DNA from: a bacterium
GTDB lineage: Bacteria; UBA9089; CG2-30-40-21; SBAY01
Assembly (NCBI GenBank): GCA_040757115.1
Contig: JBFLYA010000086.1
Location: forward strand, 1-11,982
Direction of reading: 5' to 3'
DNA length: 11,982 nucleotides
A program made the position numbers and the translations under genes. Positions 7,179-11,982 of this stretch are shown piece by piece; the first letter of the stretch is position 1; every line of letters begins with the position of its first letter. The notes below the pieces were generated by a model that had not been told where the DNA came from, did not search any database, and saw only the letters and a program-made list of their open reading frames with translations.

Positions 7179-7346
7179 TTATTTTTTAGCATTCCCTTCA
7201 ACGATTTTTATTTCGTCTTCGGTTAAGCCGTAAAGTTGGTAAACCATCTGGTCAATCTGGTTTTCGTATTCTTTGACTTGTGCCTGCTTTTCTGAATTTT
7301 GCAAATGATCATCATCGCCGGTAATTGCAAAAATTTTATCTACCAT
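7179..7346 (-). CDS. 55-aa ORF equal to a methyltransferase C-terminal tail (copy C)
   Basis: This intact 55-codon frame starts MVDKIFAIT and ends EDEIKIVEGNAKK. It corresponds to the last about 50 residues of the adenine methyltransferase at 9494-11982, with about 36 of 50 identical by hand alignment, and is closer to copy B (about 41 of 50). Its ATG overlaps the yhcG stop by one base (TAATG), so it could be translated by coupling. No other part of a methyltransferase is attached. It is most simply the stump of a second methyltransferase gene left after a rearrangement; a small free-standing protein kept by selection is the alternative. The conserved core, KEYEXQIDQMVYXLYGLTED, looks like an amphipathic helix followed by a turn. 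Confidence 0.5.
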   Translation of the reverse strand: MVDKIFAITGDDDHLQNSEKQAQVKEYENQIDQMVYQLYGLTEDEIKIVEGNAKK

Positions 7347-8368
7347 TACCTTTTTATAAGTTTCTTGTCTTTAATAATAATTTTTTCTACAGCTTTTTGA
7401 AGAAGCTTTTTATCTGGTAAAGACAAGCGATATTTTGAAGCAAAAAGTTTATTTGAAATTCCACCCAAAGCATATTCAACTAATACATGGTCTTTTTGAG
7501 CACCTAAAATAATACCTACAGGTTCATTGTCATCCTCTGTCATTTCTTCTTTCTTAAAATAATTCAAATATAAATTCATTTGTCCAATATCTTGATGATT
7601 TATTGCTCCGAGTTTAAGGTCAATTAAAACAAAACATTTTAAAATTCGCTGATAAAAAACCAAATCAATATAAAAATGTTTATTATTCAAACTGATACGA
7701 TACTGTCGTGCAACAAAAGAAAATCCTTTACCTAATTCCAATAGAAAACTTTGCATATTATCTATAATTCTTTGTTCCAATTCTTTTTCTGAATACCGAT
7801 AATCTTCAGGAATACCCAAAAACTCCAAAACATAAGGGTCTTTTACCATATCTTCAGGTTTCGCAATCTGCTGTGCTTTAGATGCAAGTTTAAGCACACC
7901 TTTTTTATCTTTACTTAACGCTAATCGTTCAAAGAGCATGGAATCTATCTGTCGTTCTAATTCGCGGGTACTCCAATGATTTGTAATACATTCTTTTTCA
8001 TAAAAAGACCGAGATAGTTCATCTTCTATTGAAAGAAGAAGCACAATATGTGTCCAGGACAAAATGGCAGGCACTGCCTGCCATTTTTGATATGCAAGGT
8101 AAAAGTTACGCATATTCAACACATTTCTTCTTGAAAAACCTTTGCCATAGCGAGTTTTTAAATCTTTAGATAATCTGTCCAGAAGATGAGAACCATAAAC
8201 TGGTTTTTCACGATTCTCTTGCTCATAAACAACAATATGATGTCCAATCTCCCAATAAGTTTTAGTCAATATAGTGTTTATTTGTTGATATGCTTTTTGT
8301 CGTGCTTCGTTTAGAAGACTACCTATTGAATCTAAAAGATTTTGATAAGGTTTTGTTATGTTTTTCAT
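7346..8368 (-). CDS. PDDEXK nuclease domain protein, YhcG/DUF1016 family
   Basis: The 340-residue protein has the two-part layout of this family. The N-terminal DUF1016 helical domain (about 10-165) carries YWEIGHHIVVYEQ (39-51) and the conserved RNVLNMRNFYLAY segment. The C-terminal PD-(D/E)XK nuclease-like domain (about 180-325) carries the probable catalytic residues in FYIDLVFYQR and, after a strand, VLIDLKLGAI, giving the D...(D)xK core; many relatives have ELK where this has DLK. GQMNLYLNYF and NEPVGIILGAQKDHVLVEYAL complete the signature. Such genes are often found beside type I and IIG restriction systems, and the substrate is not well established. The ATG has GGGGGAG upstream, supplied by the end of methyltransferase tail copy B, whose stop lies 4 nt before it. 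Codons 94-102 form a perfect palindrome. Family call strong; biological role unknown. Confidence 0.92.
   Translation of the reverse strand: MKNITKPYQNLLDSIGSLLNEARQKAYQQINTILTKTYWEIGHHIVVYEQENREKPVYGSHLLDRLSKDLKTRYGKGFSRRNVLNMRNFYLAYQKWQAVPAILSWTHIVLLLSIEDELSRSFYEKECITNHWSTRELERQIDSMLFERLALSKDKKGVLKLASKAQQIAKPEDMVKDPYVLEFLGIPEDYRYSEKELEQRIIDNMQSFLLELGKGFSFVARQYRISLNNKHFYIDLVFYQRILKCFVLIDLKLGAINHQDIGQMNLYLNYFKKEEMTEDDNEPVGIILGAQKDHVLVEYALGGISNKLFASKYRLSLPDKKLLQKAVEKIIIKDKKLIKR
8061..8087. repeat. 27-bp perfect palindrome inside yhcG
   Basis: Thirteen-base arms AAAATGGCAGGCA and TGCCTGCCATTTT flank a single C at 8074. On the coding strand it encodes part of QKWQAVPAILSW. It has the look of a terminator (GC-rich arms, T-run) but lies in the middle of an open gene that continues normally on both sides. 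Confidence 0.8.
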
Positions 8369-8372
8369 AATT

Positions 8373-8553
8373 TTATTTCTCCCCCTCTACTATTTTTATT
8401 TCGTCTTCAGTTAAACCGTAAAGTTTGTAGACCATCTGGTCAATCTGGTGTTCGTATTCCTTAACTTTTGCCTGCTTGGTAGAATTGGTTAAATAATCGT
8501 CATCCTTCGTGATGGCAAGGATTTTATCTACCAGGGGAAAATGGTTGCTGACC
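8373..8553 (-). pseudogene. Methyltransferase C-terminal tail remnant (copy B), frameshifted
   Basis: Read on the - strand this encodes LVDKILAITKDDDYL and onward to EDEIKIVEGEK plus stop, matching the last about 50 residues of the methyltransferase at about 41 of 50 positions. Just upstream, GQQPF in another frame matches the parent's DQQPF, so homology crosses a 2-nt deletion that breaks the frame. In the tail frame a TAG at 8555-8553 closes the reading frame, and no ATG precedes the conserved part. Upstream of about 8553 the likeness ends and the small-RNA segment begins. It is clearly a non-functional fragment, though its end (GAGGGGGAGAAATAA) supplies the Shine-Dalgarno of yhcG. Confidence 0.78.
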
Positions 8554-8583: not shown

Positions 8584-8613
8584 TTGACAAACATAATTAA
8601 TATATGCTATACT
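8584..8613 (+). promoter_or_regulatory. Strong sigma-70-type promoter of the small RNA
   Basis: TTGACA (8584-8589), an 18-nt AT-rich spacer and TATACT (8608-8613) give a perfect -35 and a near-perfect -10 on the + strand. Start is expected near 8620, which is the foot of the RNA hairpin. No protein gene follows on this strand. Confidence 0.75.
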
Positions 8614-8619
8614 AACTAT

Positions 8620-8695
8620 AGACTCGGGTAGTAATTGGAGATGTCAGGCAGGGACTGACTATCGTTTGACAATTACCACACCTGAGTCTTTTTAT
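8620..8695 (+). ncRNA. Candidate small structured RNA, about 75 nt, unrecognised family
   Basis: The predicted transcript folds end to end. GACTCGGGT (8621-8629) pairs with ACCTGAGTC (8680-8688) in nine pairs, one of them G-U. After a small internal loop GTAATTG (8631-8637) pairs with CAATTAC (8670-8676). The apical part holds an inner stem GTCAG/CTGAC (8643-8647 and 8655-8659) with loop GCAGGGA. A T-run starts at 8689. The promoter places the first base at the foot of the stem and the T-run ends it, so the whole unit is bounded. It lies opposite to and between two - strand genes; its last bases are antisense to the stop codon of the DUF3800 gene. I do not recognise it as tRNA, 6S RNA, retron or another known class. 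It could be a regulator or the RNA part of a defence or toxin system; both are guesses. Confidence 0.62.
8670..8695 (+). terminator. Intrinsic terminator of the small RNA
   Basis: The 3' arm of the long hairpin (to 8688, 5' arm from 8621) is followed directly by TTTTTATTTT. On the opposite strand the hairpin is not followed by a T-run, so it serves the + strand transcript, not the DUF3800 gene that ends at 8692. Confidence 0.65.
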
Positions 8696-9441
8696 TTTGG
8701 TTTCCAGTACCAAATATTAAATTTAGGATAATACTCTTCCACAGATCTTTTTGAATATTTATTCCATGTTTCTGGTAAAAGATTTTTTACTTTCAACTTT
8801 GAAATAAGATGTTCTCTAATCTGATTTTTAAACTTGTTTTGAGTCGGTTTCAGATTATTTAAAATACATCCCATCAAAATATCTCCAATTTGATTTACCT
8901 GATATTGCTCTAAATGTGAAGGGATGTCGATAACATCCTTTAATGTTGGGATGTGTGAATTGAGTGAATGTTTTCCATAAGGTAGACAAAACTCCTGTTT
9001 CATTATTTCGATAAACTCATCTCCATTACATCTTGTCAAACTATCCACAAGGAGGACAGCATTAAAGATATTTTCTGTATTATGACTCATCAACAACTCG
9101 GCAAATTTCTTATAAAGCCTTGCTCTTTTTAGTCTTTCATCCTCCCATCTTTTGCCAAAGCGATTTAGGTCAATCAATCTTTGTTCTACTACCACACACC
9201 GGAACCAACTGGTAGTCTCAAAGAAAATATCCACCGCAGATTTGGCAATTTGAAGTTTTTTGTTATCAGTAACATAATTATATTTAATCTCCCTTAACAT
9301 TCCATTTTGAGAGAAATAACTATATTTTTTCTTTACCTCTGATAATTTTCGGTGAAGGAATTTAGGGTGGGGATTAAAAAGTGCTCCCAGTAACAAATAT
9401 TGATGGTCATTATCATAAGATTCGTCAAAGTATATTAACAC
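8692..9441 (-). CDS. DUF3800 domain protein
   Basis: This is a 249-residue protein from GTG 9441. DUF3800 proteins have an RNase H-like fold and a conserved N-terminal D-E-S, here IYFDES at residues 3-8. VLLVDS near the middle and YQVNQIGDILMGCI towards the end match the second and third acidic motifs (the last usually reads Q-x-A-D). The family is frequent in phage and defence regions but has no settled biochemical function. The GTG is chosen because AAGGGG stands 7 nt upstream (9449-9454) and because IYFDES belongs at the very N-terminus. A longer frame from a TTG at 9504 overlaps the methyltransferase stop and adds 21 unlikely residues. The gap to the methyltransferase stop is 52 bp and contains a possible TATAAT (9484-9479). 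The gene may be co-transcribed with the methyltransferase. The stop codon sits in the T-run of the opposing small RNA. Confidence 0.85.
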   Translation of the reverse strand: MLIYFDESYDNDHQYLLLGALFNPHPKFLHRKLSEVKKKYSYFSQNGMLREIKYNYVTDNKKLQIAKSAVDIFFETTSWFRCVVVEQRLIDLNRFGKRWEDERLKRARLYKKFAELLMSHNTENIFNAVLLVDSLTRCNGDEFIEIMKQEFCLPYGKHSLNSHIPTLKDVIDIPSHLEQYQVNQIGDILMGCILNNLKPTQNKFKNQIREHLISKLKVKNLLPETWNKYSKRSVEEYYPKFNIWYWKPK

Positions 9442-9493: not shown

Positions 9494-9669
9494 CTATCTT
9501 TCAACCATTTTTATCTCGTCTTCAGTTAAACCGTATAGTTCATAAACCCTCTGGTCAATCTGGCGTTCGTATTCTTTGACTTTCGCTTGCTTGCTCGGAT
9601 TATCTAAATAATCGTCATCCTTTCTTATTGAAAGAATTTTATCTACAAGAGAAATAAAGGGTTGTTGGT
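9494..9669 (-). repeat. Parental copy of the repeated methyltransferase tail (copy A)
   Basis: The last about 55 codons of the methyltransferase (DQQPF through LVDKIL to EDEIKMVER) are the intact version of the fragments at 8373-8553 and 7179-7346. The three direct copies have diverged (about 36-41 of 50 residues identical between pairs), so they are not a recent duplication. B and C share residues that A lacks (ITxDDD, DQMVY, KIVEG). Confidence 0.8.
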
Positions 9670-11982
9670 CGGATTTGGATATTATTTTTATTGGCAATTT
9701 TTTTAAATCATCAGGGTAAAAACCAATTTGACTCCTCCTAATTGAATCTAAGAACTTATAAGCAAACTGTGAATTAAGAATTGCCAGAAGATATTTTAAA
9801 TTAAAACGCCTTGAATTTTCTTCTAATTGATTTCTGAATGGATAAATATTCTTAATTTTAAAGTCTTTCTTAATGCTTCCATCAATGCTTCTGTTTTGAA
9901 CATCTTTAAGGTCCTTCCATAAAACAGAGACAAAACAACTGTCATTACACAACAAACCAGAGTTATCAAGTATGGCAGGTGTCATTCTGCCCTTTATTAT
10001 TTTTTCAGGTAAATATAATTCTGGAAAGGTTGGTCTAACTAATTTTTTAGGACTCCTTTTAGTTTCCCATTCCAGATATTTTATTTTTTCTATCACATAT
10101 TTATTAATCCATTTACCTTCAATATAAGGTTTTGGATGTATTTTATCTTGAACATCAGAAATTAAATCTTCTTTGGTAAATTCACCTTTCCAAAAACGCT
10201 CGTCGTTGCTAGGTCTTAATCCATAACTCACATAACAAATTTCACCCCAAGTTAAAGCATTTGATAAATTCCCAAAAGAATTATTTTCAATATCCATCTT
10301 AAAAGTATTCTCATCCATTTCTGATTGCTTCTTTGAAGGGAGCAAAACAAAATTATTCCATTCATTAATATGTTTAATTCGTAATGGAATATGATTTTCA
10401 TCTTTTGCTTTTTTATATTCAATAATAATATTCCTAACCGCCACTTCAAATATTTTTAATTCTGAACAAAAATTTATCCTATTTATTAGGGCATTTTCTA
10501 AAAAGTATCTATGTGATTTTATTGCATATTTTGAAGTCATATAGGCATCAGGAATAATAAATTCAAGGATGCCATAAGATGTAAGAATTTTATAACCTCT
10601 TTCAATAAATGCTACATATAAATCCCACTTCTCCCATAAAGTTTCATAGGCATTGTATTTTTTTACTGCATCTCTTTGCTTTTTGATTTCTGGATTATCA
10701 GCTCTAACATACGGCGGATTTGCTATAACAATATCAAATCCCCCTGTTACTCCGAACATCCATTCCGGGTCAAAGAAATCTGCAGAAGCGTTCTGGTCAT
10801 ATAAATCAAATTTTGCAATCTTCTCTGCCGTGGATGTATCCCACCCGCTGTATTTTAATAAATCAGCAATCTCCTTACGAATTTGCGCATCTTTCTTTTG
10901 ATAGTCAAGTTTCTCTTTTCTTGTTTTTGCTTCAAAGTATTTATGCCTGATTTGTTTTAGCTCTTCCTCCTTCTTTTCAATGTCAGGATTTTTAAATGAC
11001 ATTTGTTGAGGTTTATCAAGTCCAAGCAATGTATTTGCTGATACAAATCTTGTTTCAAGGTTTGGTAGTGCTCTTATGCCGAAATTTTCCTTATTTCTAT
11101 CAACCTTTTGGTCTAAAACAAGAGAAATAAAAAACCGCAGTTTTGAGATTTGAATGGCTATGGGCTGGATGTCAACTCCGTAAATACAATTTTCTATGAG
11201 ATACAATTTACGGGCATAATCAGGATAGTTTATACTTTCGTCAAATGTTTCGTTTATCTCTTTAAGACGCTCTTCCCTTTGGTTTTTATCACCCTGTTTA
11301 AATACCTCTTCAGATTCTTTGAGTGCCTTTTGGTATTGCAATTCCTTCCACTGTTCGTTATCAGGGTCTAACTTCTGAAGAGCAGAAACAAGTTTGTGCA
11401 GGATACCCATTGGAAAAGCCCCTGAACCACAGGCAGGGTCAAGAATCTTAACCTCATCAATTGCTGATATTATCTTTTGTTTCTCTTCTTTTGAAAACAC
11501 CGGGTTCTCTTCTGAATAGGAAAGAAGTGTTTTAATTTTTTCTTCTGCCTGCGCCGAGGCTTTGGCAGACAGGTCATCAGTTTCATGAAGTTTTTCTTTG
11601 AGGTATTCAAACAGACTTGCTTCCACCATATAGTCAACTATCTCTCTGGGTGTGTAGTAACTCCCTGTTGCTTTTCTTGCTGTGGTTGCTGTTTCCGGGT
11701 TATATGAAGCAAGCAGGTTTTCAAATACATTGCCGAGCAATTCTGGGTCCAATGCTATTTCCTGGTCTATAGGTGTGTTTTCATCAATGGTAAAATTGTA
11801 ATTATTCAAAATCTCAATCAGTCCTCTGACAGGTTTATTACCGAGACCATATTGGGACAGGTCAACTCTTTCCTCTTCCTGTTGAAAAAATAAATAGTCC
11901 GGGATGATTGAGTGCTTTGCTGGGTTTCTTGAAAACCCATCCACATAAATCACCTTTCCTGTTTCATCTTCTTTATCAAGGC
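9494..11982 (-). CDS. Adenine-specific DNA methyltransferase, Eco57I/type IIG-like (5' end outside window)
   Basis: The frame is open to the right edge, so at least 828 residues are present and the N-terminus, where a nuclease domain would lie in type IIG enzymes, is missing. Counting from a GTG codon at 11953, ATGSYYTPREIVDYMV (95-110) is the usual entry to the methylase domain, LDPACGSGAFPMG (171-183) is the S-adenosylmethionine motif, YGVDIQPIAIQISKLRF (258-274) follows it, and NPPYVR (412-417) is the catalytic motif of N6-adenine methylases. A TaqI-like target-recognition domain follows (about 590-760, with IIKGRMTPAILDNSGLLCN), then the C-terminal tail that recurs twice downstream. The enzyme would methylate, and if the nuclease domain exists also cut, a specific DNA site. 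A BREX PglX protein has similar motifs, but no BREX genes are visible. A 26-bp palindrome codes for SAKASAQA near residue 130. Confidence 0.9.
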   Translation of the reverse strand, partial: LDKEDETGKVIYVDGFSRNPAKHSIIPDYLFFQQEEERVDLSQYGLGNKPVRGLIEILNNYNFTIDENTPIDQEIALDPELLGNVFENLLASYNPETATTARKATGSYYTPREIVDYMVEASLFEYLKEKLHETDDLSAKASAQAEEKIKTLLSYSEENPVFSKEEKQKIISAIDEVKILDPACGSGAFPMGILHKLVSALQKLDPDNEQWKELQYQKALKESEEVFKQGDKNQREERLKEINETFDESINYPDYARKLYLIENCIYGVDIQPIAIQISKLRFFISLVLDQKVDRNKENFGIRALPNLETRFVSANTLLGLDKPQQMSFKNPDIEKKEEELKQIRHKYFEAKTRKEKLDYQKKDAQIRKEIADLLKYSGWDTSTAEKIAKFDLYDQNASADFFDPEWMFGVTGGFDIVIANPPYVRADNPEIKKQRDAVKKYNAYETLWEKWDLYVAFIERGYKILTSYGILEFIIPDAYMTSKYAIKSHRYFLENALINRINFCSELKIFEVAVRNIIIEYKKAKDENHIPLRIKHINEWNNFVLLPSKKQSEMDENTFKMDIENNSFGNLSNALTWGEICYVSYGLRPSNDERFWKGEFTKEDLISDVQDKIHPKPYIEGKWINKYVIEKIKYLEWETKRSPKKLVRPTFPELYLPEKIIKGRMTPAILDNSGLLCNDSCFVSVLWKDLKDVQNRSIDGSIKKDFKIKNIYPFRNQLEENSRRFNLKYLLAILNSQFAYKFLDSIRRSQIGFYPDDLKKLPIKIISKSDQQPFISLVDKILSIRKDDDYLDNPSKQAKVKEYERQIDQRVYELYGLTEDEIKMVER
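11544..11569. repeat. 26-bp imperfect palindrome inside the methyltransferase gene
   Basis: TCTGCC (11544-11549) pairs with GGCAGA (11564-11569), and inside it GCC-GA-GGC forms a second stem. On the coding strand it gives SAKASAQA, a low-complexity stretch between the methylase entry motif and the SAM motif, where such a sequence is dispensable. GC content is clearly above its surroundings. Confidence 0.6.

What the first reader, a model, noticed from the sequence alone, without database searches (positions are those of the whole stretch)
8584..8695. A self-contained small RNA gene hidden between two defence genes, on the opposite strand
A perfect TTGACA, an 18-nt spacer and TATACT point to a start at the foot of a hairpin (8621-8688) that takes up the whole transcript and ends in a T-run. 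Promoter, fold and terminator fit each other to the base, which chance rarely gives, and no protein gene follows on that strand. It sits inside a cassette with a DUF3800 gene, so it could be a regulator, an antitoxin-type RNA or the RNA part of an unknown defence system. I recognise no known family.
Basis: partly seen in the sequence, partly recalled or inferred. Interest (0 to 1): 0.78.

Follow-up and report, generated by a model that had tools for sequence, protein, structure and literature searches.

The report
New small RNA paired with nuclease
Between two bacterial defence genes lies a real, about 75-nucleotide structured RNA gene with its own start and stop signals that travels, across very different bacterial phyla, with one lineage of DUF3800 proteins (predicted RNase H2-like nucleases), which suggests an RNA that controls or arms a nuclease.

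Summary
At 8584-8613 there is a near-consensus extended promoter, and at 8620-8693 one long interrupted hairpin ending in a T-run, convergent with the DUF3800 gene and abutting its stop codon. Every relative of this DUF3800 protein whose 3' flank could be read (14 loci besides the window, from about nine phyla) carries the same RNA at the same place. All 24 base pairs recur, 18 with changes on both sides. G-U outnumber C-A cells 39 to 2, so the + strand RNA is selected. In 386 genomes the RNA and this protein lineage occur in the same two. No Rfam 15 family matches, yet Rfam's DUF3800-V and DUF3800-IX RNAs lie in the same genome in the same convergent layout. So this is a new class within a known, functionally unexplained kind: RNAs paired with DUF3800. 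The protein models as an RNase H2-like fold. Best reading: a two-part RNA-nuclease module in which the RNA binds and restrains the nuclease (antitoxin-like), about 50%; an RNA cofactor or guide is the main rival.

The parts
8584..8613 (+). extended sigma-70-type promoter: -35 TTGACA (8584-8589), TG (8605-8606), -10 TATACT (8608-8613)
   Evidence: a promoter-like pair at the same distance (2-6 nt before the model start) in all 16 aligned copies, though 4 of 16 score no better than shuffles
8620..8693 (+). structured RNA, about 75 nt, one long interrupted hairpin plus T-run; inferred start about 8619-8621
8620..8629 (+). outer stem P1a, 5' arm (pairs with 8680-8689)
   Evidence: of the 9 pairs modelled, 6 changed on both sides in relatives
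8631..8637 (+). stem P1b, 5' arm (pairs with 8670-8676)
   Evidence: 7 of 7 pairs changed on both sides in relatives
8638..8669 (+). conserved core: GA / GAU-GU ... AC-U-AUC / GYUAANA asymmetric internal loop with a variable-length terminal hairpin; proposed protein-binding site
   Evidence: near-invariant columns in 15 distinct sequences
8680..8697 (+). P1a 3' arm and T-run, intrinsic terminator
   Evidence: in Patescibacteria copies a separate downstream hairpin with T-run takes this role
8692..9441 (-). DUF3800 protein, predicted RNase H2-like nuclease; conserved start is the GTG at 9439-9441; stop codon 8692-8694 lies in the RNA's T-run
9494..11953 (-). Eco57I/N6-methylase, type IIG-like restriction-modification protein (window part)
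8386..8550 (-). diverged second copy of the 3' end of the restriction-modification gene (81%), bounding the DUF3800-RNA cassette
7346..8368 (-). YhcG/DUF1016 PDDEXK nuclease (PADLOC candidate PDC-S02)

Best explanation
The feature is a small non-coding RNA gene that forms a two-part module with the convergent DUF3800 gene. Shown here: the RNA has its own promoter and terminator signals, a conserved and covarying structure on the + strand, and it co-occurs and co-varies with one DUF3800 lineage. Inferred: the constitutive RNA accumulates, is bound by the DUF3800 protein (an RNase H2-like nuclease by fold) at the conserved GA/GAU-AUC/GYUAANA internal loop, and keeps the nuclease inactive. When the RNA is lost or its supply stops, for instance when a phage shuts off host transcription, the nuclease is freed and harms the cell or invader. 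That is toxin-antitoxin-like logic with an RNA antitoxin made from the opposite strand.
For: Structure: 24 pairs, 96% of cells paired, 18 pairs changed on both sides, 0 of 500 shuffles reach it. Strand: 39 G-U against 2 C-A cells. Promoter at a near-fixed distance in the relatives. Linkage: same 2 of 386 genomes for RNA and protein; exactly one RNA copy in each of 13 host genomes. RNA and protein distances correlate (Mantel r = 0.75, p = 1e-4; 0.53, p = 0.02 without Patescibacteria). Protein: AF2 model pLDDT 89; RNase H2 chains top VIA-align 2 (Z 9.8, 153 aligned, 3.5 A); invariant D5, E6, E50, D132, D186. Asymmetry in the phylum: all 7 intact DUF3800 genes have a convergent RNA, while 5 of 9 DUF3800-V/-IX RNAs lack an intact DUF3800 partner, as expected if the RNA is the safe half. 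Defence neighbours: restriction-modification genes in 6 loci; ParE, RhuM, FRG or PIN genes in others.
Against: No binding, toxicity or transcription data. RNAs may outlive DUF3800 merely because they are a smaller target for mutation, and two of the five cases are one duplication. Mantel correlation is also expected if the pair simply travels as one cassette. Nuclease activity is inferred from fold and conserved acids only; the Foldseek match is weak (best E 1.4e-3). DUF3800 proteins also occur with CRISPR effectors (PMC10910872, PMC12669027), which fits an RNA-processing or cofactor role as well.
Confidence: 0.5

Rival explanations
1. RNA cofactor or guide: DUF3800 needs the RNA to be active, as an RNA-guided or RNA-activated RNase H-fold nuclease, and the pair acts directly on invading nucleic acid.
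For: RNase H fold; 1:1 linkage; DUF3800 proteins found beside Cas12a2 and in VI-F/V-A2 CRISPR loci (PMC10910872, PMC12669027); defence neighbourhoods.
Against: The transcript starts at the stem and ends at or just after it, leaving no variable guide segment at either end; only the terminal loop varies. RNA copies of the related classes persist without an intact nuclease.
Confidence: 0.25
2. Cis-antisense or interference regulator: transcription of the RNA against the 3' end of the DUF3800 mRNA limits DUF3800 expression, and the fold only stabilises or terminates the RNA.
For: Convergent, 3' ends overlap; strong promoter.
Against: Overlap is only a few bases in the window and small in most loci. 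The internal loop is near-invariant and Patescibacteria copies use a separate terminator hairpin yet keep the fold. Orphan RNAs of the related classes keep their structure.
Confidence: 0.12
3. DUF3800 and its RNA are parts of a mobile element and the RNA serves its movement, not defence.
For: Same cassette in about nine phyla with unrelated flanks; direct repeats bound it in the window, L045 and L050, possibly L042; internally deleted copies of a related cassette in the same genome.
Against: One copy per genome; no shared ends, no target duplication of fixed length; 10 of 13 loci show no clear flanking repeats.
Confidence: 0.1
4. Only a terminator or a chance hairpin.
For: Promoter + hairpin + T-run alone occurs 0.17 times per simulated window.
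Against: Compensatory changes, conserved loops, promoter and linkage in 14 other loci.
Confidence: 0.01

Closest known systems
Rfam DUF3800-V RNA (RF02964)
   Same: Structured RNA on the opposite strand, abutting the 3' end of a DUF3800 gene, with CTTGACA-type promoter and T-run; present in the same genome.
   Different: 96-position model with a different, longer structure; no match to our RNA at E up to 10; partner DUF3800 belongs to another lineage.
Rfam DUF3800-IX RNA (RF02968)
   Same: Same convergent layout; L034 and L077 copies lie within 2 nt of the DUF3800 stop.
   Different: Different fold and sequence; no match to our RNA.
Rfam DUF3800-I RNA (RF02969)
   Same: By name, linked to DUF3800; cited in PMC11701678.
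   Different: No match here or in the 19 genomes of the phylum.
Type III toxin-antitoxin systems (ToxIN and relatives)
   Same: Possible logic: structured RNA restrains a nuclease.
   Different: From general knowledge, type III RNAs are repeats co-transcribed upstream of the toxin, and the toxin has a different fold; here a single hairpin on the opposite strand and an RNase H2-like protein.
OMEGA (TnpB/IscB) RNA-guided nucleases
   Same: RNase H-type nuclease plus a non-coding RNA from the same cassette.
   Different: No guide segment; RNA convergent instead of same-strand; no TnpB/IscB protein (comparison from general knowledge).

Membership tests
DUF3800-associated RNAs (the kind) | RNA gene next to a DUF3800 gene in many genomes | tested here: met
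   window plus 14 other loci with readable 3' flank
DUF3800-associated RNAs (the kind) | conserved secondary structure with covariation | tested here: met
DUF3800-associated RNAs (the kind) | convergent with DUF3800 and abutting its stop codon, as seen for DUF3800-V and -IX in this phylum | tested here: met
Rfam DUF3800-I, -V, -IX and any other DUF3800 family in Rfam 15 | covariance-model match | tested here: not met
   cmscan with all 4227 families at E up to 10 on the window, L012 and 11 relative loci: none
Published DUF3800 motifs possibly not in Rfam | match to the published alignment | not testable with these tools
   the 2017 motif paper is not held
RNase H2-like nucleases (the protein) | RNase H2-like fold | tested here: met
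   VIA-align 2 Z 9.8, top nine rows all RNase H2/H3; Foldseek support weak
RNase H2-like nucleases (the protein) | conserved catalytic acids | tested here: inconclusive
   D5-E6, E50, D132, D186 invariant in 14 proteins; their geometry was not checked
Type III toxin-antitoxin | RNA of tandem repeats upstream of and co-transcribed with the toxin | tested here: not met
   single hairpin, opposite strand, own promoter
Type III toxin-antitoxin | RNA inhibits the protein's toxicity | not testable with these tools
   needs expression in a laboratory strain
OMEGA RNA-guided nuclease | variable guide segment at one end of the RNA | tested here: not met
   start and stop coincide with the conserved stem or its terminator

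The most novel reading that the evidence does not exclude
DUF3800 and its many RNA classes form a widespread, unrecognised RNA-nuclease defence system in which each protein lineage has its own RNA architecture, this being one more class, and the RNA switches an RNase H2-like nuclease on or off during infection.
Probability: 0.35. Interest if true: 0.85.

Novelty: new member of a known kind. Interest (0 to 1): 0.58.

Why it matters
RNAs linked to DUF3800 have been known as motifs, but in the papers I could read no function is given. This class adds a compact, well-covarying RNA of about 75 nt with a single-domain partner of about 250 residues: small enough for in vitro binding, structure and toxicity tests. 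The 1:1 pairing of RNA class with protein lineage, the defence neighbours and the RNAs of sister classes left behind without nucleases turn 'what do DUF3800 RNAs do?' into a direct experiment.

Tried and rejected
Rfam at E up to 10: only chance matches such as microRNA models. BLASTN of the RNA against phages gave promoter-only matches of A/T-rich sequence; plasmids none. tblastn of the protein against phages and plasmids: none. Viral contigs: no protein relatives; six exact matches to the RNA core pattern, none accepted by the covariance model and none beside this DUF3800; they look like coding repeats. The C54 match in the same genome shares the promoter only, downstream of a tRNA-like sequence. 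379 genomes from the phylum of one Patescibacteria host added no new RNA. PADLOC and NCBIfam do not know this DUF3800; PDB by sequence gave nothing useful. The reverse strand also folds, but the G-U count rejects it as the selected strand.

Full report
Setting. The window lies on contig C86 of a 4.3-Mb, 462-contig genome. On the minus strand it carries an Eco57I/N6-methylase type IIG-like restriction-modification gene (9494-11953), a DUF3800 gene (conserved start GTG 9439-9441, stop 8692-8694) and a YhcG/DUF1016 nuclease gene (7346-8368).

The observation. The promoter (TTGACA 8584-8589, TG 8605-8606, TATACT 8608-8613), the hairpin (8620-8689) and the T-run (8689-8693) are there. The fold has z = -4.8. 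Chance alone is not negligible: a promoter-hairpin-T-run triple of this quality appears 0.17 times per simulated window. Comparison decides.

Relatives. The one DNA match spanning the hairpin among 98 genomes was G056, where the RNA again ends at a DUF3800 3' end. A search with the two DUF3800 proteins (A1, 56% identical) gave 15 loci in genome contigs, from Aminicenantes, Desulfobacteraceae, several Patescibacteria, Desantisbacteria (the G056 locus itself, L046), Actinomycetota, Elusimicrobia, Omnitrophota, Phycisphaerae and Gracilibacteria. Every locus whose 3' flank is present (14 of 15; L039 ends at a contig edge and overlaps L052 from the same genome) carries the RNA, convergent, right at the DUF3800 end.

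Structure. A model from nine sequences (R1) recovers the six Patescibacteria copies it was not built from with E from 2e-11 to 6e-7. On 15 distinct sequences, 24 pairs are 96% paired, 18 with changes on both sides; sliding the partners by one base drops pairing to about 43%. That alignment was fitted to the model, so it leans towards it; the nine-sequence MAFFT alignment gives the same picture (97%, 15 pairs changed on both sides), with the caveat that the structure was drawn from these sequences. G-U cells number 39, C-A cells 2: the selected strand is the + strand RNA and not the DUF3800 mRNA tail. The near-invariant core is GA/GAU-GU...AC-U-AUC/GYUAANA. Promoter hexamers sit at a near-fixed distance in all copies, although in 4 of 16 they score no better than shuffled sequence. 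Patescibacteria copies end in a separate terminator hairpin, so the fold is more than a terminator.

Linkage. In 386 genomes R1 finds the RNA in two, and the protein search finds this DUF3800 lineage in the same two. Thirteen further host genomes have exactly one copy each. A sample of 379 genomes from one host's phylum adds none. RNA and protein distances correlate. The neighbours differ but are often defence genes: Eco57I restriction-modification (window, L038, L041), type I restriction (L040, L047, L048), ParE (L040), RhuM (L045), FRG (L049), PIN (L039). Others are not, for example DUF72, DUF58 and a glycosyltransferase.

Known kind. Rfam 15 has no match for our RNA, but it holds DUF3800-I, -V and -IX. 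The same genome carries DUF3800-V three times and DUF3800-IX once; the IX copy (48 bits) shows only with lax filters and is missed by the default search. In this phylum these RNAs have the same layout: L078, L079, L077 and L034 put the RNA within 2 nt of the DUF3800 stop, on the opposite strand. Two more DUF3800 genes (L033, L076) have convergent promoter-driven RNAs that Rfam does not name. So the kind is known and this is a new class. The original motif paper is not held, so novelty is judged against Rfam 15 only; that it described eleven DUF3800 motifs is my recollection.

The protein. AlphaFold2 with 14 relatives gives pLDDT 89 and pTM 0.89. The top nine VIA-align 2 rows are RNase H2 or H3 (Z 7.6 to 9.8); Foldseek's best is RNase H3 at E 1.4e-3. 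D5, E6, E50, D132 and D186 are invariant. Papers describe DUF3800 as an RNase H-fold nuclease with rearranged catalytic residues, linked to Cas12a2 and some CRISPR loci (PMC10910872, PMC12669027).

Mechanism. Inhibitor or cofactor cannot be told apart by sequence. I favour an inhibitor for two reasons: the RNA has its own, often strong, promoter and no guide-like segment; and in this phylum intact DUF3800 genes always have an RNA (7 of 7), while of nine DUF3800-V/-IX RNAs four have an intact partner, three a truncated one and two none (the C50 and C86 hits in G005 are one site seen at two overlapping contig ends). The small-target argument is a fair objection, and two of the truncated cases are one duplication.

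Noticed in passing
window 9501-9667, 8386-8550, 7194-7345: Three copies (79-81% identical) of the last 150-167 bp of the restriction-modification gene bound the DUF3800-RNA cassette and then the DUF1016 gene, as if cassettes were added one by one at the gene's 3' end. Direct repeats also bound the cassette in L045 (84 bp, 89%) and L050, possibly L042.
   Followed up: partly
L036 and L037 (G000:C20), L087 (G000:C200): All three DUF3800-V RNAs of this genome lack an intact DUF3800: two share an internal deletion leaving 52 N-terminal and 13 C-terminal residues (1152-bp duplication, 94%), one has none.
   Followed up: yes
L088 about 741-807 (G013:C342:3240-3306): A DUF3800-IX RNA without DUF3800, 1.5 kb from an almost identical copy that has one.
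   Followed up: yes
L033 about 1318-1425 and L076 about 2112-2210: Two more DUF3800 genes with convergent promoter-driven structured RNAs that Rfam 15 does not name; both share GUAAG-CCU and AGGG-C stretches with L087 and may be diverged DUF3800-V.
   Followed up: partly
L051 3001-3744: The Gracilibacteria DUF3800 gene is intact only if TGA is read as glycine (two sites, one at an invariant glycine), so the cassette has adapted to code 25.
   Followed up: yes
L002 1091-1205 (G000:C54): A similar strong promoter downstream of a tRNA-like sequence appears to drive another short transcript ending in a hairpin and T-run, not next to DUF3800.
   Followed up: no
L046 2553-2623 (L012 2716-2786): A 71-bp near-perfect palindrome next to the Desantisbacteria cassette; only chance microRNA matches.
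   Followed up: no
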